From positions 3,157,001 through 3,221,000 of the forward strand of contig NZ_CP006587.1 of assembly GCF_000737515.1 (NCBI RefSeq): a DNA stretch of 64,000 nucleotides, read 5' to 3'. The notes under the pieces were generated by a model that worked only from the letters and a program-made list of their open reading frames with translations, searched no databases and had not been told where the DNA came from. Positions 7,092 to 22,741 of the stretch are shown one piece after another. Positions within the stretch are counted from its first letter, which is position 1. The number at the start of each line of letters is the position of its first letter. The stretch comes from Hymenobacter sp. APR13. GTDB taxonomy: Bacteria > Bacteroidota > Bacteroidia > Cytophagales > Hymenobacteraceae. Both the position numbers and the translations under genes were made by a program.

Positions 7092-10000
7092 TTGGCTAAA
7101 ACATTTACTTCCGCCTTAATCCCCTATTGTCCTTTATCCACCGCATTTCCATCTGGCCGCTTCTGGCGGAACGTAGGAGTGGTTGTGGCAACAATGCTTA
7201 CCGGTGCTCAGACCGCGTCTGCTCAAATGGTGGTGTCAACTCGCCAGCCCACGCGTTCAGTTGTTTCGGCGCCGCGTGGTAGTGCTGTGGTAATAGGGTT
7301 CTCGCAACCTGTAACGGGCGCCACCGCCGCGGGTATGCGCGTGTACAGCCCGCTTCTGCAGGGTCGCCGCGCCGGAACCCTGACGGGCGGCAGCACTAGT
7401 ACGCTCACGTTTACGCCCATCAGGGCCTTCGCCCCGGGTGAATTGCTCTCGGTCAGCTTACCTTCAACCTTGCTTTCCACCAATGGTGCGGCGTTGCGGC
7501 GCGAGGTCTATCAGTTTCAGGCTGCTACCGGCGGCCCCGGCCGCGGGTTCTTCCTCGACACTACCATAGTGGGCAACACCACCACCCGCGACCAGGTGCT
7601 TGGCGACCTGGACAATGATGGCGACCTGGACCTGGTCACGACCGGCTCGCTGTACGGATGCCGCATTTTTCTGAATAACGGGGCCGGTCGGTTTGCTCTC
7701 AAATCCGGGCTGGTGACGGCCGAAGAGCCCAGCGGCGTAGCGCTGGCCGATGTCGATCAGGACGGTGACCTGGATATGCTGGTTAGCGACGCTGAAAATT
7801 CCACCGTGGCCGTGTGTCTCAATGATGGTACCGGGGAGTTCATCGGGTCAGTTGGTGGGGCGCAAAATGCGCCTGTAGGGGCGCGGCCGGTAGAAGTGGC
7901 TGCCGGCGACGTAGATGGCGACGGCGACCTGGATTTTGTAACGGCCAACGCCGACGACGGCTCAGCCACGGTGCGCTACAACAATGGCAGTCTGCCACTG
8001 CTATACACTGGCGTTACAACCGTGCCCATGGGCGCCGGCCCTACGTCCGTTGCGCTGGCCGACATCGACAATGATGGCGACCTGGACCTGCTGACAACCA
8101 ATGCTGGCACGCCGAGTGCGCCATCCGGAAGCGTGAGCGTAAGCCGCAATTCGGGGATGGGCGTCTTTGGGAGCTACACCAGCGTGACCGTGGGCCTACA
8201 GCCTTCTGATCTGGCTTTGGCCGATGTAGACGGTGATGGCGACCTGGACCTGCTGACGGCCAGCGTCGGAACAGCCAGTGTGAGTTTGCGGCTAAACAAT
8301 GGTAGCGGGACTTTCACGGGCACCACCACGTTGCCGCTGCCTGCGGGCAGTACTCCCAGTGGCTTGCGAACCGGTGACGTAGACGCCGACGGCGACCTGG
8401 ATGTAGTGGTGGCCCAGGGCCGTGGCGGGCGCGTACTGACGTTTCTGAACACGGCCGGCACGTTTGCGCAGCAGAGTCGGGCGCTACGCCTGAACCGTAC
8501 CCCAGCTACAATGGCCGTCACCACAGAAGGCGTAACGCTGGGCGACGTTGATGGTGACCTGGACCTCGACCTCATCACGTCCGACAACGAAGGCCACGTG
8601 CTACTGAGCCGGAACGAAGGCCCACCACCGCCATTGCCGTCGCCACGTGTTACCGGCCTGACACCCGAGCGGGGGCCGGTGGGCACGGTTGTTACCATCA
8701 CCGGTACTGCCCTGCTTGATATAGCTGCTGTGACGTTCAATGGTGTACCGGCCGTGGGGGCTGTGCCAAATGCTGCCGGCACTTCTCTGGACGTGACCGT
8801 GCCGGCCGGTGCCAGCACTGGTCCGGTGGTGGTCGTGACCGAGGAAGCCGGCACCGCCACCTCGCCTGCCAGCTATGAGGTTACGCTGCCCGTGCCGGTG
8901 CTGCTGACGGGGATTGTGCCCGCCCGCCACGCGGTGAATGCACCGGTTACCAGTCCTGTCACAGCGAGCTTCTCGGCTTCAGTTACGGCGGCTTCTGCCG
9001 GAAAAATGCAGATATTCAGCCGCTGGCGTGGGCGTAGAGCCGGTACGCTGGACGGTGCCGGCACCGCTACCCTTAGCTTCCGACCGGCGCAGCCCTTCGC
9101 AGCGGGTGAGCAGCTCAGCGTGAGTCTGCCGGCCAGTATGCAAGCCCCCGACGGCAACCAAGTGCGCAAACAGGTGGTGCAGTTTACTGCCGCCGTGGTC
9201 GGCACCGGGCGGCACGACTTCGTGACCAGAAGTGTACTGCCGGCCATTGAGACCAATCATTTCCGTGTGGGCGACCTAGACGACGACGGTGACCTGGACT
9301 TGGTGGTTCCCAGCGGCAACACAGGAATAGTGAGATATCTGAATGACGGGGCTGGTAATTTCACCAGTGCCTCCACCATCAGCGGCCCCGCCGCGGCCAA
9401 CCTGCTCGAACTTGGTGACCTGGATGCCGACGGCGACTTGGACCTGCTCAGCACAGCATACAATGGCCAGGCGGTAGTGTGGCGCAATAATGGTCCGGCC
9501 GGGTTCAGCATCGCCGGAAACTTGTATACCGGGGGCTACGCGGGCAACGCGCTGGTAGACGCAGATGCCGATGGCGACCTGGACCTGCTGGCTCTGCGGG
9601 GCAACGTAGTCAGTACTTTTTACAACAACGGCAGCGGTATTTTTTCGGCGCAGCAGGATTCCTATCCTGGGGTAGCAGGTACGAGCCTGCTTACCGGCGA
9701 TGTAGACAACGACGGAGATATTGATCTGCTGATTTTGGGTACTACCGGCGGTTCGAGCCAGCGGGTAGCCGGCATAGCCCTGAATGATGGTAATGGCGTG
9801 TTCAGCGCCTCCGCCAGCCTGCCGCCGGTGGCGGGCATTGCTGCCCAGGCCGCCCTGGCTGACCTGGATGCTGATGGCGACCTTGACCTGGTGACGAGTG
9901 TTGGCTATCAGGAGTCTCTCAACGTCCGGCTCAACGATGGGCAGGGCCGTTTCGGCAACAGTATTGCTACCCTGTCGCTGGTCTGTACGAGCTTGGCCAT

Positions 10001-13000
10001 AGCCGACGCGGATTCGGACGGCGATTTGGATATCATCACTCATGCCGGAGTGGCGCTCAACGATGGTGCCGCTCGCTTCCCCCGCATCGTGGCTACCCCG
10101 GAAGCCGGCCTTTCGGCCAGCCTAGCCCTGGTCGCCGACCTAGACGGCGACCAGGACCTGGACTTGCTTACCAATGATCAGCAGGGAGCTATCCGGGTCA
10201 AGCTGAACCGGCCCGGCCCACCGCCCACCGTTACGGAGTTGCAGCCAGGTAGTGGCCCGGTAGGGGGGCTAGCCCGCCTTGTCGGTGCCAACCTGCAGAC
10301 GGTGACGGGGGTGGTGTTCAACGGTGTGCCGGCTATCAGCTTCACGGCTATTTCGCCCACTCAGGTGCTGGCCACCGTGCCCGCCGGCGCCACCACCGGT
10401 CCGGTTGTACTCACCACACCAGCCGGTACCGCTACGGCTCCCGGTAGTTTTGTGGTGACGCAGCCGCTGGCCGTTACCGGATTGGCACCGCGCCTCAACG
10501 CCAATAATGTGGCCGCCAATACGCCCGTCACGGTGACGCTGTCCCGCGCTGCCGGGGCTGGTGCGGCCGCGGAGCTACACGTATTCGGCAACCGGCACGG
10601 TGGCCGCCGCCAGGGTACCACCACGGGCGGTGGCACCACCACCTTGGCCTTTACCGCTGCCCGGCCCTATGCCGCCGGCGAACTGGTGAGCGTTACGATT
10701 CCTGACCGCCTCACGGGCGCCGATGGCAGCCACGCGCTGCGCCAGACCCAGCAGTTTCGGATAGCGGCCACAGGCACGGGTACGGGGCTGATGATGCCGT
10801 TGCCCAACGGTCGTTCTGTGGCGGCTTACCAGTCGCGCTACGGGTTTGCCGTGGGCGACGTGGACAATGATGGAACCACAGATTTGCTTACCACGGCAGG
10901 TATGGTCCGCTTCAACGATGGAGAGGGCGGCTTTGCCGACAGCCTGGCATATGCGCTGTTCATTGGCGACAGTCCGCGCCAGGTAGCCCTGGCCGACGTG
11001 GACGCCGACGGTGACCTGGACCTGCTCTCTAGCAGTGGCCACCTATGCCTCAATACCGGCAGCCGTACGTTCGACCGGCAACCGCGTATCAGGGGCCTCT
11101 ACGAAGACACACCAGACTTTGCCTTGGGCGACCTTGATGCTGATGGCGACCTGGATATTGTGGCGCCGAACGCTGCTCGCGACAGTGTGCAGGCGTTGTT
11201 CAATGACGGGGCCGGGCACTTTGCCGCCCGGCTAGGAGTGGCAGTGGGGGGGCAGTCTGCTGGCATCAGCCTCGGCGACCTCGACAACGATGGCGACCTG
11301 GATTTTGTAGTGGCCAACGAAAGCGGACCAGGCACCGGCACCGGCAGTACGCTCAGCATCGGCCTCAACAACGGTACCGGCTGGTTTGCTCAGGTGCAAA
11401 CGGTGGGAGCGGGCACGGGCCTGACCCGCGTGGTGCTCGGAGACCTGGACAATGACTACGACCTCGACCTAGTGACCAACAACGGTCTGGTACTGCTCAA
11501 CAACGGCACCGGGGCGTTTGCAGGTGGCCCGGCCGCCCCCGCCGGAACCGGCCTAGCATTGGCCGACCTCGACGCGGATGGCGACCTGGATCTGGTAGTT
11601 ACGGCGGCGGCTGCAACGCTGGTGCGGCGTAACAACGGCCTGGGGCAGTTTAGTGGCAACGAAAGCCTGGCAGCAGGCGACCAGCTGCACGATCCCACCC
11701 TCGCCGACCTGGATGGCGACGGCGACCAGGATCTGCTCGTAGCTGATTCCGGTAGCCTACTGCTGCACAGCCTGCTCAACCAGCGTCTGGCAGCACCCGC
11801 CGGCATCAGCGTGTCGCCGACCAGCGACTTGCCGGGGGCTGTAGTGTTCGTGACGGGTGCTGACCTGATCGGCACAACCAGCGTAACTTTCAACGGAACT
11901 CCAGCGCCTGATTTTACCGTCCTGACAGCCTCTCGTTTGGCAGTGCGTGTGCCACCTGGGGCTTCTTCAGGCATCGTACAGGTTGTCAATACGGTAGGTG
12001 CGGCCAACTCAGCAGGCGTGTTCACGGTGCTTCAGCCGGTGGCAGTTGTCAGCACCAGTCCGTTGCGGCAGGCTACGGCTCCGCGCACGGCGCCGGTTGT
12101 AGTCGGTTTCGGGCAGGCCCAGCCGGTGCACACACCGGCAAACCTGGCGATATTCAGCCAGCGGCGCGGTGGCCTGCTGGCTGGTGCCCGCAGCGGGGCC
12201 GGCAGCTCTACGCTCACCTTTACGCCCACGCAGCCCTACGAGCCGGGTGAACGGATATCGGTGAGTGTGCCGCCGGCTACCGTTGCCGGCCAGAGCCGTG
12301 TTGTGAGGCGGGTATTTCAGTTTACGGCGGCCGTTGAAGGCACCGGCCGCGGATTTCTGGGGGCCGCCTCTGCAACTCAGGACGGCGACCGGCAGGTGCT
12401 GCCCGCTGATGTTGACAACGATGGCGACCAGGATCTGCTGCTGCTCGGCGAGCTGCAGGTGATGCTGAAGCGCAACAACGGCACCGGTACCTTTGGGCCG
12501 TCCACGCCCGTGCTGGTGAGTACGTCGCAAGCCGGATTGCTGGGCAATATGGCAGTAGGCGACATCGACGGCGACGGCGACCTTGATCTGGCCGTTACGA
12601 ATGCTAGCGCCGATGTGGTGCATCTCCGCCTCAACAACGGCAACGGAACATTTACCGCGGCCCCTGATGTGTCCGTAGCAGATCGGCCGATTCAGGTGGT
12701 GCTAGCTGATTTTGATGCTGATGGCGACCAGGATCTGCTAACAGCCAACTCCGGCGAGTTTGCCACCACCACCAGCCTGCGGCTCAACAATGGCAGTGGC
12801 AGCTTTGGCGGTACCACCAACGAGGTACTTTATCCAGATGGCTACGCGGCAGTTGGACTGATCCGAGTTGGCGACCTCGACAATGATGGCGACTTGGACT
12901 TGGTGATGACCTATAGCATCACTAACTACGTGCGGCTTAATGATGGGCAAGGGCACTTCACCTCCGCGGAGCGACTGCCCTTCTCGCAGGACATTGGCGC

Positions 13001-15320
13001 GTCGTCGCTGCATCTGGCCGACGCGGACAACGACGGCGACTTGGACGTGCTGGCGCTGAGCTGGCGCGACACTGTGGGCAATGTCCATCCGCTGGGGCAG
13101 TCCTGGCTGAACGTGGTCCGTAACGATGGCGCCGGCAACTTCCGGCCCGGCGGCTTTTGGGCGGGACGGGGTATGGACGGAATGACCGTGGGCGACCTGG
13201 ATGCCGACGGCGATACGGACCTGGTCACAATCAGCTCCGGCTTCAGCACCGCCGAGGTGCTTGCTAATGACGGTGCCGGTCGCTTTGCTTTGCGGCAAGG
13301 GCTGCCTACGCTCTCCCGGCAATACAACCCTACGCTGGCTGATATTGACCGTGACGGCGACCTGGATCTGCTCCAGACCTACCCATATTTTGTAGTGCAC
13401 CAGAACAATGTGCCGCCGTCCCCAACTATCACCAGTTTTACACCGGCTATCGGGCCCGAAGGCACCGTAGTACAGCTGACTGGCAGCAATTTCGTGGGGG
13501 TGTCGGCAGTGCGCTTCAATGGGGTAGTAGCACCGGGCTTCTTGGTAAACTCGGCAACGCAGCTTACCGTGAGGGTGCCCGCCGGAGCCTCCACGGGGCG
13601 GTTGACAGTGGTAACTGCGGGTGGCACGGCTACTTCCGCTAGTAATTTCACAGTGCAGGTGCTGGCTGTAACCAGCGGCTTGGTGCCTGGTCCCAATGCT
13701 GGTTCGGTGTCGCGCGCGGCTACTCTGAACCTCACATTTTCCGCCCCGATTACAGCCGCTACAGCCGGTAACATGCGGGTGTTCGGCAGTCAGTTACGTG
13801 GGCGCCGGCCTGGGGTAGTGATGGGCGGCGGCTCCGCCACGCTGCGCTTTGACCCAGACCAGGACTTTGCGGCGGGCGAACGGGTTAGTGTAAGCTTGCC
13901 GGCCAGCATGCAAACCACCACGGCTGGCATAGTACGCAAGCAAGTATATCAGTTCACCGCTGCTACGTCAGGAGCAGGGCGAGGCTTCTTCCGACCGGGC
14001 GTCGAGGTGCCACTACGGCCCTACACGTACGCGCTGGCCACCGGCGACCTCGACAATGATGGCGACCTGGATGTGCTTACTTCCACAGAAACCAACGGGG
14101 TATTCGGCGTTGGAGTGTTGCTTAACGATGGCCAAGCCCGCCTGCTGCCGGGACCAGTAATTAATACCGGCAACCGCACTGCAGTATGGCATATTGAGGC
14201 GGCTGATGTCGACGGCGACAGTGACTTGGACGTGGTAGCCAGCGCCGGTACACTCAGTCCGGTGGTATGTCTCAACAACGGCAACGCTACCTTCGCACCA
14301 CCCCGATTCATTACCATGAACTGCGACTGGTTTGCCTTGGGGGATATGGATGCCGATGGTGACCTGGACTTGGTAGCCGCTGCCTCTGGTGCCAACCTTC
14401 TGACGGTGGCCCTCAACGATGGACAAGGATATTTCACGGCCCTGCCGACCACGCTGTCCGCGCCTTCGGCCGTGATGGTGGTACTGGTCGACGTGGACCG
14501 GGACGGTGACCTGGATGCGCTGACGGCCAATCAGGCATCGGGTATGCAGCAGTTTCTTAATGATGGCGACGGGGTGCTGGTAGCTGGGACGTCGCCGCGC
14601 GTGCCGGGAGCACCGCAGAGCCTAGCCGTCGGCGACCTGGACAGTGATGGAGATGCAGACTTGGCTGTAGGCTACACTGACTTCACCTCCGGTGGGTGGG
14701 TAGCCATCCTTGCCAACAATGGCAGCGGAGAGTTTACGCGTACGGGTACGCCTCTGGCGGCAGGCAGCGTCGGTCAGATAGTGCTCGGCGACCTAGACCA
14801 GGATGAGGATTTGGATCTGGCCGTCACTGATGCCGGCAGTAGCCTTGTGCGGGTGCAACTTAATAATGGCGGAGGAAGCTTCAGCACGTCGCAGAGCGTA
14901 GCCGTGCCCGGCAACCCGGCCCGCTTGCTGTTAGCCGACTTCGACACGGATGGTGACTTGGACTTGGGTGCACTACCAGCTACCAGCAGTGCTTCGCAAT
15001 TGTCAATCCGACTCAATGAAGCACAGCCTTTATCTGGGCTGGCTGCCAAACCCAAAGCACACGTGTTGACGTTGTATCCTAACCCGGCGCACAGCGAATT
15101 TACTCTCATCGTTCCAGATAGTCAGCGTCGAAATACGGTGAATACTGTGGCTGTGGTCCGTCTGTATAATACGGTTGGCAACCTCGTGTTGGAACAGGAA
15201 GTGCCAGCATCAGCAAGTGGTCGGCACACGATGCAGGTGGCACATTTGCCGGCCGGGATGTATGCAGTACACCTGATAGTGAAAGGCGAGGCAGCTGTGA
15301 GTAAGATCGTGCTTCGCTAG
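7092..15320 (+). CDS. Giant secreted FG-GAP/VCBS repeat protein: five Ig-propeller modules, IPT linkers, T9SS sorting domain
   Basis: The product is 2742 residues from a TTG start; no ATG lies between the upstream in-frame stop and the signal peptide, which ends near TASAQ. Five modules each hold a bacterial Ig-like domain (ending VYQFQAATG or a variant) followed by seven calcium-binding motifs of the DxDxDGDLD type, 35 in all. First and last motif positions per module are about 170-483, 726-1014, 1254-1550, 1771-2093 and 2317-2625. Four IPT/TIG domains (about 517-596, 1042-1120, 1570-1646, 2110-2191) join the modules. The C-terminus (about 2656-2742) is a type A T9SS sorting domain starting LTLYPNPAHSEF and ending KIVLR. 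Seven FG-GAP repeats are expected to close one integrin-like beta-propeller. It is predicted to be exported and surface-attached or released. Function is probably adhesion or glycan binding, without enzymatic motifs (inference). Confidence 0.93.
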   Translation: MAKTFTSALIPYCPLSTAFPSGRFWRNVGVVVATMLTGAQTASAQMVVSTRQPTRSVVSAPRGSAVVIGFSQPVTGATAAGMRVYSPLLQGRRAGTLTGGSTSTLTFTPIRAFAPGELLSVSLPSTLLSTNGAALRREVYQFQAATGGPGRGFFLDTTIVGNTTTRDQVLGDLDNDGDLDLVTTGSLYGCRIFLNNGAGRFALKSGLVTAEEPSGVALADVDQDGDLDMLVSDAENSTVAVCLNDGTGEFIGSVGGAQNAPVGARPVEVAAGDVDGDGDLDFVTANADDGSATVRYNNGSLPLLYTGVTTVPMGAGPTSVALADIDNDGDLDLLTTNAGTPSAPSGSVSVSRNSGMGVFGSYTSVTVGLQPSDLALADVDGDGDLDLLTASVGTASVSLRLNNGSGTFTGTTTLPLPAGSTPSGLRTGDVDADGDLDVVVAQGRGGRVLTFLNTAGTFAQQSRALRLNRTPATMAVTTEGVTLGDVDGDLDLDLITSDNEGHVLLSRNEGPPPPLPSPRVTGLTPERGPVGTVVTITGTALLDIAAVTFNGVPAVGAVPNAAGTSLDVTVPAGASTGPVVVVTEEAGTATSPASYEVTLPVPVLLTGIVPARHAVNAPVTSPVTASFSASVTAASAGKMQIFSRWRGRRAGTLDGAGTATLSFRPAQPFAAGEQLSVSLPASMQAPDGNQVRKQVVQFTAAVVGTGRHDFVTRSVLPAIETNHFRVGDLDDDGDLDLVVPSGNTGIVRYLNDGAGNFTSASTISGPAAANLLELGDLDADGDLDLLSTAYNGQAVVWRNNGPAGFSIAGNLYTGGYAGNALVDADADGDLDLLALRGNVVSTFYNNGSGIFSAQQDSYPGVAGTSLLTGDVDNDGDIDLLILGTTGGSSQRVAGIALNDGNGVFSASASLPPVAGIAAQAALADLDADGDLDLVTSVGYQESLNVRLNDGQGRFGNSIATLSLVCTSLAIADADSDGDLDIITHAGVALNDGAARFPRIVATPEAGLSASLALVADLDGDQDLDLLTNDQQGAIRVKLNRPGPPPTVTELQPGSGPVGGLARLVGANLQTVTGVVFNGVPAISFTAISPTQVLATVPAGATTGPVVLTTPAGTATAPGSFVVTQPLAVTGLAPRLNANNVAANTPVTVTLSRAAGAGAAAELHVFGNRHGGRRQGTTTGGGTTTLAFTAARPYAAGELVSVTIPDRLTGADGSHALRQTQQFRIAATGTGTGLMMPLPNGRSVAAYQSRYGFAVGDVDNDGTTDLLTTAGMVRFNDGEGGFADSLAYALFIGDSPRQVALADVDADGDLDLLSSSGHLCLNTGSRTFDRQPRIRGLYEDTPDFALGDLDADGDLDIVAPNAARDSVQALFNDGAGHFAARLGVAVGGQSAGISLGDLDNDGDLDFVVANESGPGTGTGSTLSIGLNNGTGWFAQVQTVGAGTGLTRVVLGDLDNDYDLDLVTNNGLVLLNNGTGAFAGGPAAPAGTGLALADLDADGDLDLVVTAAAATLVRRNNGLGQFSGNESLAAGDQLHDPTLADLDGDGDQDLLVADSGSLLLHSLLNQRLAAPAGISVSPTSDLPGAVVFVTGADLIGTTSVTFNGTPAPDFTVLTASRLAVRVPPGASSGIVQVVNTVGAANSAGVFTVLQPVAVVSTSPLRQATAPRTAPVVVGFGQAQPVHTPANLAIFSQRRGGLLAGARSGAGSSTLTFTPTQPYEPGERISVSVPPATVAGQSRVVRRVFQFTAAVEGTGRGFLGAASATQDGDRQVLPADVDNDGDQDLLLLGELQVMLKRNNGTGTFGPSTPVLVSTSQAGLLGNMAVGDIDGDGDLDLAVTNASADVVHLRLNNGNGTFTAAPDVSVADRPIQVVLADFDADGDQDLLTANSGEFATTTSLRLNNGSGSFGGTTNEVLYPDGYAAVGLIRVGDLDNDGDLDLVMTYSITNYVRLNDGQGHFTSAERLPFSQDIGASSLHLADADNDGDLDVLALSWRDTVGNVHPLGQSWLNVVRNDGAGNFRPGGFWAGRGMDGMTVGDLDADGDTDLVTISSGFSTAEVLANDGAGRFALRQGLPTLSRQYNPTLADIDRDGDLDLLQTYPYFVVHQNNVPPSPTITSFTPAIGPEGTVVQLTGSNFVGVSAVRFNGVVAPGFLVNSATQLTVRVPAGASTGRLTVVTAGGTATSASNFTVQVLAVTSGLVPGPNAGSVSRAATLNLTFSAPITAATAGNMRVFGSQLRGRRPGVVMGGGSATLRFDPDQDFAAGERVSVSLPASMQTTTAGIVRKQVYQFTAATSGAGRGFFRPGVEVPLRPYTYALATGDLDNDGDLDVLTSTETNGVFGVGVLLNDGQARLLPGPVINTGNRTAVWHIEAADVDGDSDLDVVASAGTLSPVVCLNNGNATFAPPRFITMNCDWFALGDMDADGDLDLVAAASGANLLTVALNDGQGYFTALPTTLSAPSAVMVVLVDVDRDGDLDALTANQASGMQQFLNDGDGVLVAGTSPRVPGAPQSLAVGDLDSDGDADLAVGYTDFTSGGWVAILANNGSGEFTRTGTPLAAGSVGQIVLGDLDQDEDLDLAVTDAGSSLVRVQLNNGGGSFSTSQSVAVPGNPARLLLADFDTDGDLDLGALPATSSASQLSIRLNEAQPLSGLAAKPKAHVLTLYPNPAHSEFTLIVPDSQRRNTVNTVAVVRLYNTVGNLVLEQEVPASASGRHTMQVAHLPAGMYAVHLIVKGEAAVSKIVLR

Positions 15321-19660: not shown

Positions 19661-19794
19661 TCACGGATTTTTGCGGATTAAACGGATTAATCGGATTTCG
19701 TGGACGGCGTGCTGTGGTAGGGTTCTGCTACTTCTATAGGTGCTGACGACTATAAAATCCGACCAATCCGTTTAATCCGCAAAAATCCGTGATT
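19659..19794. repeat. Perfect 30-bp inverted repeat (AATCCG...CCGTGATT type)
   Basis: Arms 19659-19688 and 19765-19794 are exact reverse complements (ends AATCACGG / CCGTGATT, internal GCGGATTAAACGG). They lie between convergent genes, and each arm supplies part of the neighbouring stop codon: TAA at 19658-19660 on plus, and TAA at 19795-19793 on minus. I recognise this as a sequence type that recurs across unrelated bacterial genomes. It may end transcription from both sides. Confidence 0.85.
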
Positions 19795-21148
19795 ATATCA
19801 GCCCCCGAGCCTTGAATTCCAGGTATTTGTTGATGGTGTTCACCGTCAGGTTTTGTGGGGCCGTGAGCAGGGCGTGGATGCCGTAGCGGTTCAGCTCGCG
19901 CACAATCTGGCGCTTTTCCTGCGCGAATTTATCGGCAATGGTTTGGTTGTAGACGTCCTGCGGGGTGGCGGCGGGGGCGTCCAGAAACTCGCGCAGCTCG
20001 GTGTTTTCAAAGAACACCACCAGCAGCAGGTGGTCTTTGGCGAGGCGGCGCAGGTAAGGCAGCTGGCGCTGCATGCCGCTCAGCGTCTCGAAGTTAGTGA
20101 ACAGAATCAGCAGGCTGCGCTGTCGGACGTTGTTCCTGACGCTGATGTACAGCCGCTCGTAGTCGGTTTCAAGGTACTTGGTGCGCTGGCGGTAGAGCAC
20201 TTCCAGCAGCTTGCGCATATGGCCGCCACGCCGGTCGGCGGGCAGCACCGCGCCGGGCTGGTGCGAGAAGGTAATCAGGCCGGCCTTGTCGTGCTTGAGG
20301 ATGGCAATGTTGCTGACGACCAGGGTAGCGTTGATGGCGTAATCCAGCAAACTCAGGCCCTCAAACGGCATACGCATCACGCGGCCCTTATCAATCAGGC
20401 AGTACACCTGCTGGGCGCGCTCGTCCTGAAAGTGGTTGACCACCAGCGAGTCGGCGGTGTGGCCGGTGGTGGTGCGACGGGCGGTGGCTTTCCAGTTGAT
20501 GGAGCGCGGGTCGTCGCCGGGCACGTAGGGCCGGATCTGCTCGAACTCCATGCTGTGCCCGACCCGCCGGATGCGCTTCACGCCCACTTCCGTCAGGCGG
20601 TTGCTGATGGCCAGCAGCTCGTACTGCCGCATCTGCAGAAACGACGGATACACCGGCACCACCCGTTTCTCATCAAACTGAAAGCGCCGCCGCACCAGCC
20701 CCAATGGCGAGGCCACGTACACGTTCAAGGCCCCAAACTCGTACTCGCCGCGCTTCACCGGCCGCAGCTGATACCGGATTACCTGCGTCTCGCCCGGCCG
20801 GATAGCAGCCCGAAACAGCACGTCGCGGCGCTGAAACTGGTGCGGAATCTCGTCGATGGTTTCGGTGCTGACCGGGAAGCGGTAGTGGTTTTCGAGGTAG
20901 AGGCTGATGTCGTTGTCGGAGCCGTTGGCCAGCTTGTCGCCCAGCACGCGCCGCCCGAACAGGTGGCCGGCGCCGCCTTTGGCCGGGGCGTAAAGCAGCA
21001 GAACATCCAGCGCCAGCAGCACCAACAGCAAGCCCAGCGCCAGCTGCACCGGTGCCAGCCAGCCCGGCAGAAAAAACGCCACCACCAGCCCCAGGATAAG
21101 AGCGGCAAGTAGCAGAAAGAAGCGGCGGGTGAGAAAGAAGGATTTCAT
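19793..21148 (-). CDS. DUF58 membrane protein of the MoxR operon
   Basis: The product is 451 residues. Two N-terminal membrane helices (about 8-28 and 32-52) are followed by a beta-rich region and the DUF58 signature near residues 200-225 (EFEQIRPYVPGDDPRSINWK). The C-terminal part is von Willebrand A-like (CLIDKGRVM, LLILFTNFETLSG). DUF58 proteins are almost always next to MoxR AAA+ ATPases and are thought to be their clients or membrane partners. Here the moxR gene is upstream on the same strand, but a GIY-YIG cassette of about 490 bp separates them. The ATG at 21148 is clear, with the repeat arm of the cassette beginning five bases upstream. Confidence 0.9.
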   Translation of the reverse strand: MKSFFLTRRFFLLLAALILGLVVAFFLPGWLAPVQLALGLLLVLLALDVLLLYAPAKGGAGHLFGRRVLGDKLANGSDNDISLYLENHYRFPVSTETIDEIPHQFQRRDVLFRAAIRPGETQVIRYQLRPVKRGEYEFGALNVYVASPLGLVRRRFQFDEKRVVPVYPSFLQMRQYELLAISNRLTEVGVKRIRRVGHSMEFEQIRPYVPGDDPRSINWKATARRTTTGHTADSLVVNHFQDERAQQVYCLIDKGRVMRMPFEGLSLLDYAINATLVVSNIAILKHDKAGLITFSHQPGAVLPADRRGGHMRKLLEVLYRQRTKYLETDYERLYISVRNNVRQRSLLILFTNFETLSGMQRQLPYLRRLAKDHLLLVVFFENTELREFLDAPAATPQDVYNQTIADKFAQEKRQIVRELNRYGIHALLTAPQNLTVNTINKYLEFKARGLI

Positions 21149-21152
21149 GGAT

Positions 21153-21195
21153 TGTCATTGCGAGCGGAGCGAAGCAATCCTTCCTCTCTAAGCTC
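21153..21195. repeat. Left terminal inverted repeat of the GIY-YIG cassette
   Basis: It begins TGTCATTGCGAGCGGAGCGA and continues GAAGCAATCC, then CTTCCTCTCTAAGCTC. It is the imperfect reverse complement of 21591-21636. The CATTGCGAG...GAAGCAATCC core belongs to a repeat type seen widely in bacterial genomes (recall, not searched). It lies five bases from the DUF58 start codon. Confidence 0.8.
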
Positions 21196-21239
21196 AAAAC
21201 GCCCCTTCAAGACAAGCTCTCCGGATGAAGGTGTACTAC

Positions 21240-21530
21240 TCAAATCGTGTCAAATAAGTCCAGCCAGCCAGAATTATTCATTTCAATCAAGGCTATTTTC
21301 TTCGCCCGTGAACCGCCCTTCAATCGTTTCTCGCGCGCAATAGCGGCTTTCACATCCTGATAATGCTCGAAATAGACCAGCTTATTCAGGTTGTATTTCT
21401 GCGTGAAGCCGGGCTGCTTGCCTTCTTTGTGCTCAGAAACGCGCCGGCGTAAATCGTTGGTGACGCCGATGTAGAGCGTAGTATGATTGGCGTTGGTGAG
21501 GATGTAGACGTGATAATTATGCTCACGCAT
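21240..21530 (-). CDS. Small GIY-YIG nuclease-domain protein
   Basis: The product is 96 residues and consists only of the GIY-YIG fold. Seen: VYILTN (residues 8-13), YIG at 20-22, the Arg-rich NDLRRRVSEH (catalytic Arg expected around 28-30), the expected catalytic Glu67 in IAREKRLKGGSRAKKI, and a C-terminal SGWLDLF. It belongs to the stand-alone UPF0213/YhbQ-like group. Such genes are often multicopy in Bacteroidota (general knowledge). It is flanked on both sides by inverted copies of one palindromic repeat and interrupts the moxR-DUF58 pair in the same orientation. That suggests a mobile or formerly mobile unit in which the nuclease nicks or cleaves DNA (inference). Confidence 0.93.
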   Translation of the reverse strand: MREHNYHVYILTNANHTTLYIGVTNDLRRRVSEHKEGKQPGFTQKYNLNKLVYFEHYQDVKAAIAREKRLKGGSRAKKIALIEMNNSGWLDLFDTI

Positions 21531-21590
21531 AGCGAACAGCGGTTAACCAGTAAGCTGGCGACGGAGACCTTTGCGCTTAGGATGGCTTAG

Positions 21591-21660
21591 AGCTCAGAGA
21601 GGAAGGATTGCTTCGTCGTGCCTCCTCGCAATGACAACTAGGATACTTCTCGCAATGACA
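21591..21660. repeat. Right terminal inverted repeat plus partial third copy
   Basis: 21591-21636 mirrors the left arm: GAGCTCAGAGAGGAAGGATT, then GCTTCG and CTCGCAATGACAA, with a few mismatches and short indels. A further partial copy, CTTCTCGCAATGACA, follows at 21646-21660 and abuts the moxR stop codon. Looser similarity may extend each arm inward by about 30 bases. Confidence 0.75.
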
Positions 21661-21661
21661 G

Positions 21662-22729
21662 CTACCGCGGAACCTCAATCTGCTGCAGAATCTGCTTCAC
21701 GATGTCGTCGGGGGTGCTGCCTTCCATTTCGCGCTCGGGCGTGAGCTGGATGCGGTGGCGCAGTACTGGGGCGGCCAGATACTGCACGTCTTCGGGCGTT
21801 ACGAAGTCGCGGCCGCGGAGGGCGGCCAGTGCCTTGGCACCGTTGAGCAGGGCCAGCGAGGCGCGGGGGGATGCGCCGAGGTAGAGGCCTTTGTGGGCGC
21901 GGGTCTGGCCTACCACCCGGGCAATGTACTCCAGCAGCTTGGGCTCGACGTGCTGGCGGCGCACCTGCTCGCGCAGGCTACGCAGGTCGTCGGCGCTGAG
22001 CACGGCCTGCACCGCTTCCAGCGGCGTGCCGCCAAAACCGGCGTGGTGGCCCTGCAGAATGGCAATTTCCTCTTCCATGGTGGGGTAGCCCACATGCAGC
22101 TTGAACAGGAACCGGTCGAGCTGGGCTTCGGGCAGGCGGTAGGTGCCTTCCTGCTCGATGGGGTTTTGGGTGGCCAGCACCACGAACGGCTCCGGCACGG
22201 CGTAGCGGGTGCCGTCCTGGGTCACCTGGCGCTCCTCCATCACCTCAAACAGCGCCGACTGCGTTTTGGCCGGCGCCCGGTTAATCTCGTCAATCAGCAC
22301 GATGCTGGCGAAGATGGGACCGGGCCGGAACTCAAACTCGGCCTTGTTAGGGCGGAAAATGGAGGTGCCTAGCACGTCGGAGGGCATGAGGTCGGGCGTG
22401 AACTGCAGGCGGCTGAAGGGCACGTCGAGGGTGCGGGCCAGCAGCTTGGCGGTGAGGGTCTTGGCCACGCCAGGCACGCCTTCCAGCAGAATGTGCCCGT
22501 CGGCGAGGATGGCGGTCAGCAGCAGCTCGGCCAAGGGCTGCTGCCCTACAATCACCTTGCTGAGCTGCTGCCGGATGGCTTCGGCATGGCGGCTGAGGGC
22601 GCTCAGGTCGGTGCGGGCGGCGAAGGGGGCGGCGGTGTCCGGTGCGGCGGCAGCTTCGGCAGTCGGCTCCGGGGCGGGCTGGGCGTGGGGCTGGGGGAAT
22701 TCGTTTTCAGGCGTCAGATTATTTTCCAT
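21662..22729 (-). CDS. MoxR-family AAA+ ATPase
   Basis: From the ATG at 22729 (a TTG four codons upstream is also open) the product is 355 residues. A Pro/Ala-rich N-terminal tail of about 45 residues precedes the AAA+ core. Walker A GVPGVAKT is near residues 84-91, Walker B IVLIDEINRA near 141-150, and the sensor-1 stretch is VVLATQNPIEQEGTYRLPEAQ. MoxR ATPases act as chaperones or remodellers for partner proteins, often with vWA/DUF58 proteins. Upstream on the strand is the DUF4350 gene after a 166-bp AT-rich gap; downstream is the GIY-YIG cassette, then DUF58. Confidence 0.93.
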   Translation of the reverse strand: MENNLTPENEFPQPHAQPAPEPTAEAAAAPDTAAPFAARTDLSALSRHAEAIRQQLSKVIVGQQPLAELLLTAILADGHILLEGVPGVAKTLTAKLLARTLDVPFSRLQFTPDLMPSDVLGTSIFRPNKAEFEFRPGPIFASIVLIDEINRAPAKTQSALFEVMEERQVTQDGTRYAVPEPFVVLATQNPIEQEGTYRLPEAQLDRFLFKLHVGYPTMEEEIAILQGHHAGFGGTPLEAVQAVLSADDLRSLREQVRRQHVEPKLLEYIARVVGQTRAHKGLYLGASPRASLALLNGAKALAALRGRDFVTPEDVQYLAAPVLRHRIQLTPEREMEGSTPDDIVKQILQQIEVPR

Positions 22730-22741
22730 CTTGGCAGTCAA

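What the first reader, a model, noticed from the sequence alone, without database searches (positions are those of the whole stretch)
21151..21660. GIY-YIG nuclease gene boxed by inverted repeats inside a conserved moxR-DUF58 operon
Seen: a 96-aa GIY-YIG gene lies between about 43-46-bp imperfect inverted repeats (21153-21195 and 21591-21636), with a third partial copy at 21646-21660. The unit sits exactly between moxR and DUF58, which are normally adjacent, and does not break either gene. Known: stand-alone GIY-YIG proteins can be multicopy in Bacteroidota, and CATTGCGAG...GAAGCAATCC repeats are widespread. Inference: the nuclease and the repeat may be one mobile unit, like REP/RAYT pairs but with a GIY-YIG enzyme. 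This is my best candidate for an under-described system.
Basis: partly seen in the sequence, partly recalled or inferred. Interest (0 to 1): 0.78.

Follow-up and report, generated by a model that had tools for sequence, protein, structure and literature searches.

The report
Nuclease gene boxed by REP hairpins
A tiny GIY-YIG nuclease gene sits between two copies of a dispersed hairpin repeat, and across many bacterial phyla the type of hairpin follows the type of nuclease, so this nuclease family may be the long-missing dedicated enzyme of a large class of bacterial repeats.

Summary
A 96-aa GIY-YIG gene (21240-21530, -) lies between inverted arms GTCATTGCGAG...GAAGCAATC (21154-21179, 21606-21635), between intact moxR and DUF58. 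The same arms form 22 short facing doublets elsewhere in the genome; one further doublet carries the gene, in the place of its central loop. Of 73 relatives retrieved by protein alone from many phyla, 43 are boxed by inward-facing GTCAT-stem hairpins within 330 bp; outer windows of the same loci give 0, and S23 genes in repeat-bearing genomes 0 of 20. GIY-YIG subclades, even within one genome, wear different stems (ATTGC, ATGTC, ATGCA, ATTCC). Stem type follows the protein tree (13 changes against 25 shuffled), and in several genomes the dispersed repeats match it. The arms largely fit the CGTC-tagged REPs of Di Nocera 2013, described as lacking a dedicated transposase. I propose that this GIY-YIG family is that enzyme: a counterpart of RAYT/REP with an unrelated nuclease. 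Association and specificity are shown. Binding, nicking and mobilisation are inferred: no clean empty site or target duplication was found, and 30 of 48 relatives with ATTGC repeats lack the cognate subclade.

The parts
21153..21636 (.). whole boxed element, TGTCATTGCGAG ... CTCGCAATGACA (484 bp)
   Evidence: ends match the ends of the short doublets elsewhere in the genome
21240..21530 (-). GIY-YIG nuclease gene, 96 aa, UPF0213-like
   Evidence: Y9, Y20, G22, R29, E67, N86 invariant in the 18 aligned sequences; AlphaFold2 mean pLDDT 93; best PDB match 1zg2, UPF0213
21154..21179 (+). arm 1 (ATTGC-type REP hairpin), GTCATTGCGAGCGGAGCGAAGCAATC
21606..21635 (-). arm 2 (ATTGC-type REP hairpin), GTCATTGCGAGGAGGCACGACGAAGCAATC
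21649..21659 (-). third, partial arm GTCATTGCGAG
21180..21241 (+). arm-1 inner half (CTTCCTCTC box, then AAGCTCTCCGG...), similar to the inner part of the gene-less doublets
   Evidence: scores above shuffles (at most 2 of 100 as high) in 11 of 13 doublets tested
21562..21605 (-). arm-2 inner half, the mirror part
   Evidence: above shuffles (at most 1 of 100 as high) in 5 of 13 doublets; not clearly above in the other 8
21662..22741 (-). moxR (AAA_3), intact neighbour upstream
19793..21148 (-). DUF58, intact neighbour downstream

Best explanation
The GIY-YIG gene and its two arms are one genetic unit, comparable to a REPtron. The protein is the dedicated enzyme of a CGTC-tagged REP hairpin. 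It recognises its cognate hairpin (tag YGTC, stem beginning AT, subclade-specific next bases) when this is extruded as a cruciform or in single-stranded replicating DNA, and nicks near the tag. That would let the boxed unit and, in trans, the gene-less REP doublets be copied or moved, with host enzymes doing the joining. Shown: boxing, inward orientation, agreement between enzyme subclade and stem, gene-less doublets of the same type in the same genome, purifying selection, invariant catalytic residues. Inferred: binding, nicking, transposition.
For: Own genome: 22 short doublets (142-177 bp start to start), 10 unpaired copies, and one 471-bp doublet holding the gene; the gene sits where the central loop is. 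Boxed inward: 16/18 nearest clade, 4/12 and 15/39 other GIY-YIG genes of the family, 43/73 across phyla, 11/30 in the alphaproteobacterial set. Controls, inward: 0 in six outer windows (n = 50-64); S23 genes 0/30 and 0/20 in repeat-bearing genomes; moxR-anchored loci 0/30; shuffles 0/1500. The two arms share the 5-mer stem in 57/78 (shuffled mean 16.7, maximum 27 of 5000). Stem label on the protein tree: 13 changes (least possible 9) against 25.2 shuffled, as low in 0 of 200; 6 changes for 33 rows of one family with six types. All 18 genomes with the nearest clade have ATTGC repeats, against 30 of the other 132 (P = 1e-4 within the two genera that hold the repeat, kinship ignored). The five genomes known to have ATGTC-boxed genes hold 57-174 ATGTC repeats, while 104 of 150 genomes hold none. 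A third stem pair not used in detection is Watson-Crick in 213/232 arms (0.92 against 0.56 expected). dN/dS is 0.04-0.10 in the 5 of 9 gene pairs where dS could be estimated. The 18 nearest-clade loci plus L056 lie at nine sites.
Against: No biochemistry. No clean empty site and no target duplication: at the two own doublet positions that are not shared with G140, other hairpin doublets lie there instead. Of 48 genomes with ATTGC repeats, 30 lack the nearest clade by the 110-bit cut, among them G026 with 131 copies; five of the 30 (G070, G074, G112, G142, G144) have no hit to the window protein at E <= 1e-3. G112 and G124 hold 63 and 58 ATGTC repeats, also without a hit; G035 (79), G040 (58), G119 (44) and others hold many although I have not shown an ATGTC-boxed gene in them. 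Of the seven genomes only that of L170 matches its boxed gene clearly: L174 is mixed, L176's genome has more ATTCC/ATTTC than ATCCT repeats, and the others gave few or unlisted places. 30 of 73 cross-phylum loci are not boxed inward. Single arms do not fold better than shuffles. Known GIY-YIG chemistry (recalled) is hydrolytic, with no covalent intermediate for strand transfer. Near-copies inflate the tree statistic.
Confidence: 0.62

Rival explanations
1. Passenger: the gene rides in REP doublets that are moved by another enzyme, such as a RAYT/IS200-type transposase.
For: Y1_Tnp genes occur in 119 of 150 genomes of the family. Many repeat-bearing genomes lack the cognate GIY-YIG.
Against: Ten genomes with ATTGC repeats show no Y1_Tnp match (G053, G059, G062, G074, G086, G102, G120, G126, G141, G142). 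The four Y1_Tnp loci read have no such arms (0/4). A passenger would not be expected to follow stem type subclade by subclade. Di Nocera 2013 found no CGTC repeats flanking tyrosine transposase genes (PMC3733652, section 16 read).
Confidence: 0.12
2. Homing: the nuclease cuts gene-less REP doublets and the gene is copied in by recombination across the arms; the repeats themselves spread by other means.
For: The gene sits in the place of the doublet's centre. GIY-YIG is a classical homing-endonuclease fold (recalled; PMC1564403, passages seen).
Against: Only 1 of 23 exact-arm doublets in the own genome is filled. The gene stays at one site between distant relatives (nine sites for 19 loci). Leaves the origin of the repeats and their stem specificity unexplained.
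Confidence: 0.12
3. House-keeping: the protein processes hairpins or cruciforms formed by the dense REPs (Slx1-like) or is regulated by its arms, and does not move anything.
For: The fold matches UPF0213 and, weakly, Slx1 (E 0.0065 and above). Strong purifying selection and long residence at one site.
Against: Does not explain why the gene itself is boxed by facing arms, nor its occurrence at nine different sites in one family.
Confidence: 0.12
4. Coincidence: repeats gather in the gaps around any small accessory gene.
For: The moxR-DUF58 junction takes up varied small inserts, including ATGCT-type hairpin arms in G086, G128, G141 and G150.
Against: S23 genes 0/50 over two sets, outer windows 0, shuffles 0/1500.
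Confidence: 0.02

Closest known systems
CGTC-tagged REPs (Di Nocera, De Gregorio, Rocco 2013, PMC3733652), said there to include Neisseria dRS3 and Rickettsia RPE-4/6
   Same: YGTC tag, AT at the first two stem positions, high copy, facing dimers; alphaproteobacterial arms here (such as GTCATGCCCGGGCTTGTCCCGGGCATC) have the long uninterrupted stem described there
   Different: The paper reports no associated enzyme; here a GIY-YIG gene is boxed by them. The ATTGC and ATTCT types have a 5-bp stem plus a GA-rich internal loop instead of an 8-9 bp stem; the tail is often CT rather than CCA
RAYT / GTAG-REP (REPtrons, REPINs)
   Same: Single gene flanked by REPs, gene-less REP doublets dispersed, repeat-specific enzyme types
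   Different: Enzyme is GIY-YIG (PF01541), not an HUH tyrosine transposase (PF01797)
UPF0213 stand-alone GIY-YIG proteins (PDB 1zg2, 1ywl)
   Same: Same size and fold; profile E 5e-8 to 1zg2
   Different: No function or repeat association turned up in the papers I searched
IS element with MITE derivatives
   Same: Inverted ends, one coding copy, many short gene-less copies
   Different: No DDE or HUH transposase, no target duplication seen
GIY-YIG homing endonucleases
   Same: Catalytic domain
   Different: No intron or intein seen, no NUMOD domain in the Pfam scan, own inverted arms

Membership tests
CGTC-tagged REP | terminal tag CGTC or TGTC | tested here: met
   214 of 232 arms have T or C before GTC (GTC itself was required by the search)
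CGTC-tagged REP | AT at stem positions 1-2 | tested here: inconclusive
   imposed by my search; the unconstrained flank comparison shows GTCAT-type arms in 22 of its 23 strong pairs (all but L140)
CGTC-tagged REP | stem of 8-9 bp | tested here: not met
   ATTGC and ATTCT types have a 5-bp stem and a GA-rich internal loop; alphaproteobacterial types look compatible
CGTC-tagged REP | tail CCA | tested here: inconclusive
   CCA in 33 of 232, CTC in 71 of 232
CGTC-tagged REP | many copies, facing dimers | tested here: met
   22 short facing pairs in the own genome
RAYT REPtron | HUH tyrosine transposase | tested here: not met
   Pfam scan gives GIY-YIG and overlapping T5orf172 only
RAYT REPtron | gene flanked by REPs of its own type | tested here: met
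IS/MITE | target-site duplication | tested here: inconclusive
   none seen by eye at 10 own doublets; no clean empty site
GIY-YIG homing endonuclease | intron or intein host, NUMOD domains | tested here: not met
   intergenic between intact genes, single domain
GIY-YIG superfamily | catalytic Tyr, Tyr, Arg, Glu, Asn | tested here: met
   Y9, Y20, R29, E67, N86 invariant in 18 sequences; assignment of roles recalled
Mobile element in action | movement observed or recent empty site | not testable with these tools
   no strain series; one search gave replaced, not empty, sites

The most novel reading that the evidence does not exclude
A whole phylum-spanning class of mobile hairpin repeats is driven by a 90-100-aa GIY-YIG nuclease alone, with a readable stem code: each enzyme subclade nicks one hairpin stem (ATTGC, ATGTC, ATGCA, ATTCC, ATTCT, ATCCT...). 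This would be a non-HUH, non-DDE route of DNA mobility and the missing counterpart to RAYTs.
Probability: 0.45. Interest if true: 0.95.

Novelty: new variant of a known kind. Interest (0 to 1): 0.88.

Why it matters
Di Nocera and colleagues concluded in 2013 that CGTC REPs, which they found in five phyla and in genera such as Neisseria and Rickettsia, 'apparently lack a dedicated transposase' (PMC3733652: abstract, passages, sections 6 and 16 seen). This result names a candidate enzyme family with cognate specificity, which makes the question testable at the bench.

Tried and rejected
Narrow motif: my first count used the exact CATTGCGA motif and seemed to show that the other GIY-YIG genes were unboxed (1 of 12); the generic hairpin test showed this to be wrong, since they wear other stems. 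In the generic test L051 (divergent arms) and L056 (arms ending GAAGCAAGC) fail although by eye they are boxed; L046 has no right arm. RAYT as the mover: checked and set aside. Clean empty site: sought at the moxR junction and at three own doublets; found a solo arm, other-type doublets and one shared doublet. Single-arm folding: not exceptional. Defence and phage libraries: only weak GIY-YIG domain hits. Literature: ten searches of the held library listed no paper joining GIY-YIG to REPs; and one search listed 30 of 150 and 30 of 214 papers holding the sequence words, 20 of 87, 15 of 33 and 3 of 538. Preprints and most subscription journals were not searched, so absence in print is not shown. 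Seen: PMC3733652 (abstract, passages, sections 6 and 16); PMC1564403 (passages). Others: search listings only.

Counting notes. In one search two loci cut by contig ends (L314, L329) were measured at the wrong place; one search repeats the count correctly (again 11 of 30, with L329 in and L314 out). These 30 are the best loci of 150 genomes, 91 of which had a match. Seven of 80 loci were dropped for short flanks; three of the 80 (L129, L130, L132) are the same loci as L036, L039, L043: they were counted but removed. One search looked at 147 loci, 78 of which had inward arms on both sides. One search uses only loci with both arms of one type and no stop (56 of 57). The S23 set came mostly from genomes without ATTGC repeats, hence the second set. 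The 39 paralogues were chosen by me from the list, most of them in genomes with ATTGC repeats.

Full report
What is there. The window lies in a 5.01-Mb genome whose nearest named relatives are Hymenobacter. A 96-aa GIY-YIG gene at 21240-21530 (-) sits between moxR and DUF58, both intact. It is boxed by facing arms GTCATTGCGAG...GAAGCAATC at 21154-21179 and 21606-21635, with a third partial copy at 21649-21659.

The arms are a dispersed repeat. GTCATTGCGAG occurs 57 times in the genome (1 for the backwards control). I count 22 facing pairs 142-177 bp apart, 10 unpaired copies, and the one 471-bp pair plus third copy around the gene. Some unpaired copies are doublets with one diverged arm (L009, L016, L031). 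Most short pairs read carry an inner hairpin of the form AAGCCCTCCGGC...GCCGGAGGGCTT. The gene's element has related inner halves on both sides of the gene: the left half beats shuffles in 11 of 13 doublets tested, the right half in 5 of 13. The gene thus takes the place of the doublet's loop.

The junction. All 101 genus genomes searched have a match to the moxR query, a few (such as G026, G041, G154, G187, G190) only a weak partial one. Of the 30 best junctions read, only G000 and G062 (84% protein identity) have the cassette. The closest by moxR, G140 (95%), has a solo arm hairpin there; the rest have short gaps or other inserts, among them ATGCT- or ATGCC-type arms in G086, G128, G141 and G150.

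Enrichment. I collected 80 relatives by protein alone from the named species collection. An unconstrained comparison of left and right flanks gave inverted repeats above the 99th percentile of mismatched pairs in 23 of 80. These showed that the arms belong to a superfamily: YGTC, AT, a few variable bases, a loop, and the complement ending in ATC. With a test for that form (GTCAT N1N2 ... complement ATC), 52 of 73 loci have arms on both sides within 330 bp and 43 have them facing inward. Six outer windows (n = 64, 62, 60, 58, 55, 50) gave 0 inward. In the own family: 16 of 18 nearest-clade genes, 4 of 12 and 15 of 39 other GIY-YIG genes. In 30 loci from the order around a Rhodoplanes genome, 11 are boxed inward, with arms such as GTCATGCCCGGGCTTGTCCCGGGCATC; outer windows gave 0, 1 and 0 of 28. 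Controls, inward: S23 genes 0 of 30 and 0 of 20 in repeat-bearing genomes; moxR-anchored loci 0 of 30, Y1 transposase loci 0 of 4, shuffled flanks 0 of 1500.

Real hairpins. A third stem pair that the test does not use is Watson-Crick in 213 of 232 arms (0.92, against 0.56 expected from base make-up), and in 160 of 172 distinct arms. 214 of 232 have T or C before GTC. Against this, single arms do not fold better than shuffles; the whole element does (z = -6.05).

Specificity. Of 147 loci examined, 78 have inward arms on both sides, and both arms share the 5-base stem in 57 of the 78 (shuffled mean 16.7, maximum 27 of 5000). Many of the others differ by one transition that keeps the pair. On a tree of 56 proteins the stem label needs 13 changes (least possible 9; shuffled mean 25.2, as low in 0 of 200); 33 proteins of one family with six stem types need 6. 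The tree is weakly resolved and near-copies help the statistic. Within single genomes different paralogues wear different stems: G020, G025, G004 and G102 each have an ATTGC-boxed and an ATGTC-boxed gene; G140 has ATTCC and ATGCA.

Dispersed copies. All 18 genomes with nearest-clade genes have ATTGC repeats, against 30 of the other 132; within the two genera that hold the repeat (74 genomes) P = 1e-4, ignoring kinship. The five genomes known to have ATGTC-boxed genes (G135, G102, G020, G025, G004) hold 82, 174, 152, 67 and 57 ATGTC repeats, while 104 of 150 hold none. In the listed places of G102 the loop is mostly of CTTG or CTGG type, in G135 mostly CGNAG, as in the arms of their own boxed genes. 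In the genome of L170 most listed repeats are of the boxed gene's ATTCT type, and its exact 25-mer arm is the commonest sequence listed. The same search was less clear elsewhere: L174's genome has ATTCT and ATCCT mixed, L176's has more ATTCC and ATTTC than ATCCT, L164's and L188's have 2 and 5 matches, and the places of the two ATTGC genomes (16 and 12 matches) were not listed.

Constraint and movement. For nine pairs of genes, dN/dS was 0.04-0.10 in the five pairs where dS could be estimated; dS was saturated in four. The 18 nearest-clade loci plus L056 fall at nine sites; at a shared site the gene is inherited. This looks like long residence with rare moves. At three own doublets, G140 shares one and has other hairpin doublets in the place of the two others. 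That argues for shared intergenic slots and leaves target choice open.

Results against. Thirty of 48 ATTGC-repeat-bearing genomes lack the nearest clade by my 110-bit cut (G026 has 131 copies; L247 in G030 shows that the cut misses at least one). Five of the 30 have no hit to the window protein at all, and G112 and G124 hold about 60 ATGTC repeats with no hit; G035, G040, G119 and others hold many ATGTC repeats although I have not shown an ATGTC-boxed gene there. Loss of the enzyme would explain part of this, as Di Nocera reports for some RAYT REPtrons, but it was not tested. 30 of 73 cross-phylum loci are not boxed inward.

What it is. The arms fit the CGTC-tagged REPs of Di Nocera 2013 in tag, AT start, copy number and facing dimers. 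The Bacteroidota ATTGC and ATTCT types have a shorter, interrupted stem, and the tail is often CT rather than CCA. [quoted passage not shown] the string GIY does not occur in its held text. The structure model (pLDDT 93) matches UPF0213 1zg2 and, weakly, Slx1. I conclude that the GIY-YIG gene is most likely the dedicated enzyme of these REPs. The anatomy parallels RAYT/REP; membership among RAYTs fails, since the enzyme is unrelated. Nicking of the cognate hairpin and mobilisation are inference from anatomy and covariation.

None of these moved the odds.

Noticed in passing
moxR-DUF58 junction, loci L099-L128: The junction is an insertion hot spot: a NADAR/YbiA-like gene in G104, G124, G183; an S23-like gene in G044, G100 (both names recalled, not scanned); ATGCT- or ATGCC-type hairpin arms in G086, G128, G141, G150.
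   Followed up: partly
L209 1560-1746 and 8090-8253 against L259, L260: The same intergenic slot holds an ATTGC doublet in the own genome but ATCCT-, ATGCA- or ATGCC-type doublets in relatives: slots are shared or elements replaced.
   Followed up: partly
L209 3332-3428: A roughly 100-bp repeat of another family with many matches in G140 and G062.
   Followed up: no
L001 (G000:C1:3665010-3665273): Second small GIY-YIG gene of the own genome, with hairpin arms on both sides but not both facing inward.
   Followed up: partly
L005-L029 doublets: The doublets' inner hairpin AAGCCCTCCGGC...GCCGGAGGGCTT resembles a two-way transcription terminator.
   Followed up: no
G026, L071: 131 ATTGC arms, the listed ones mostly doublets about 130 bp apart, yet no nearest-clade GIY-YIG: a good place to look for another or a lost enzyme.
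   Followed up: no
7092-15320: 2742-aa ORF of FG-GAP-like repeats with a sorting-type C-terminus (recalled, not scanned), at the edge of the region looked at.
   Followed up: no
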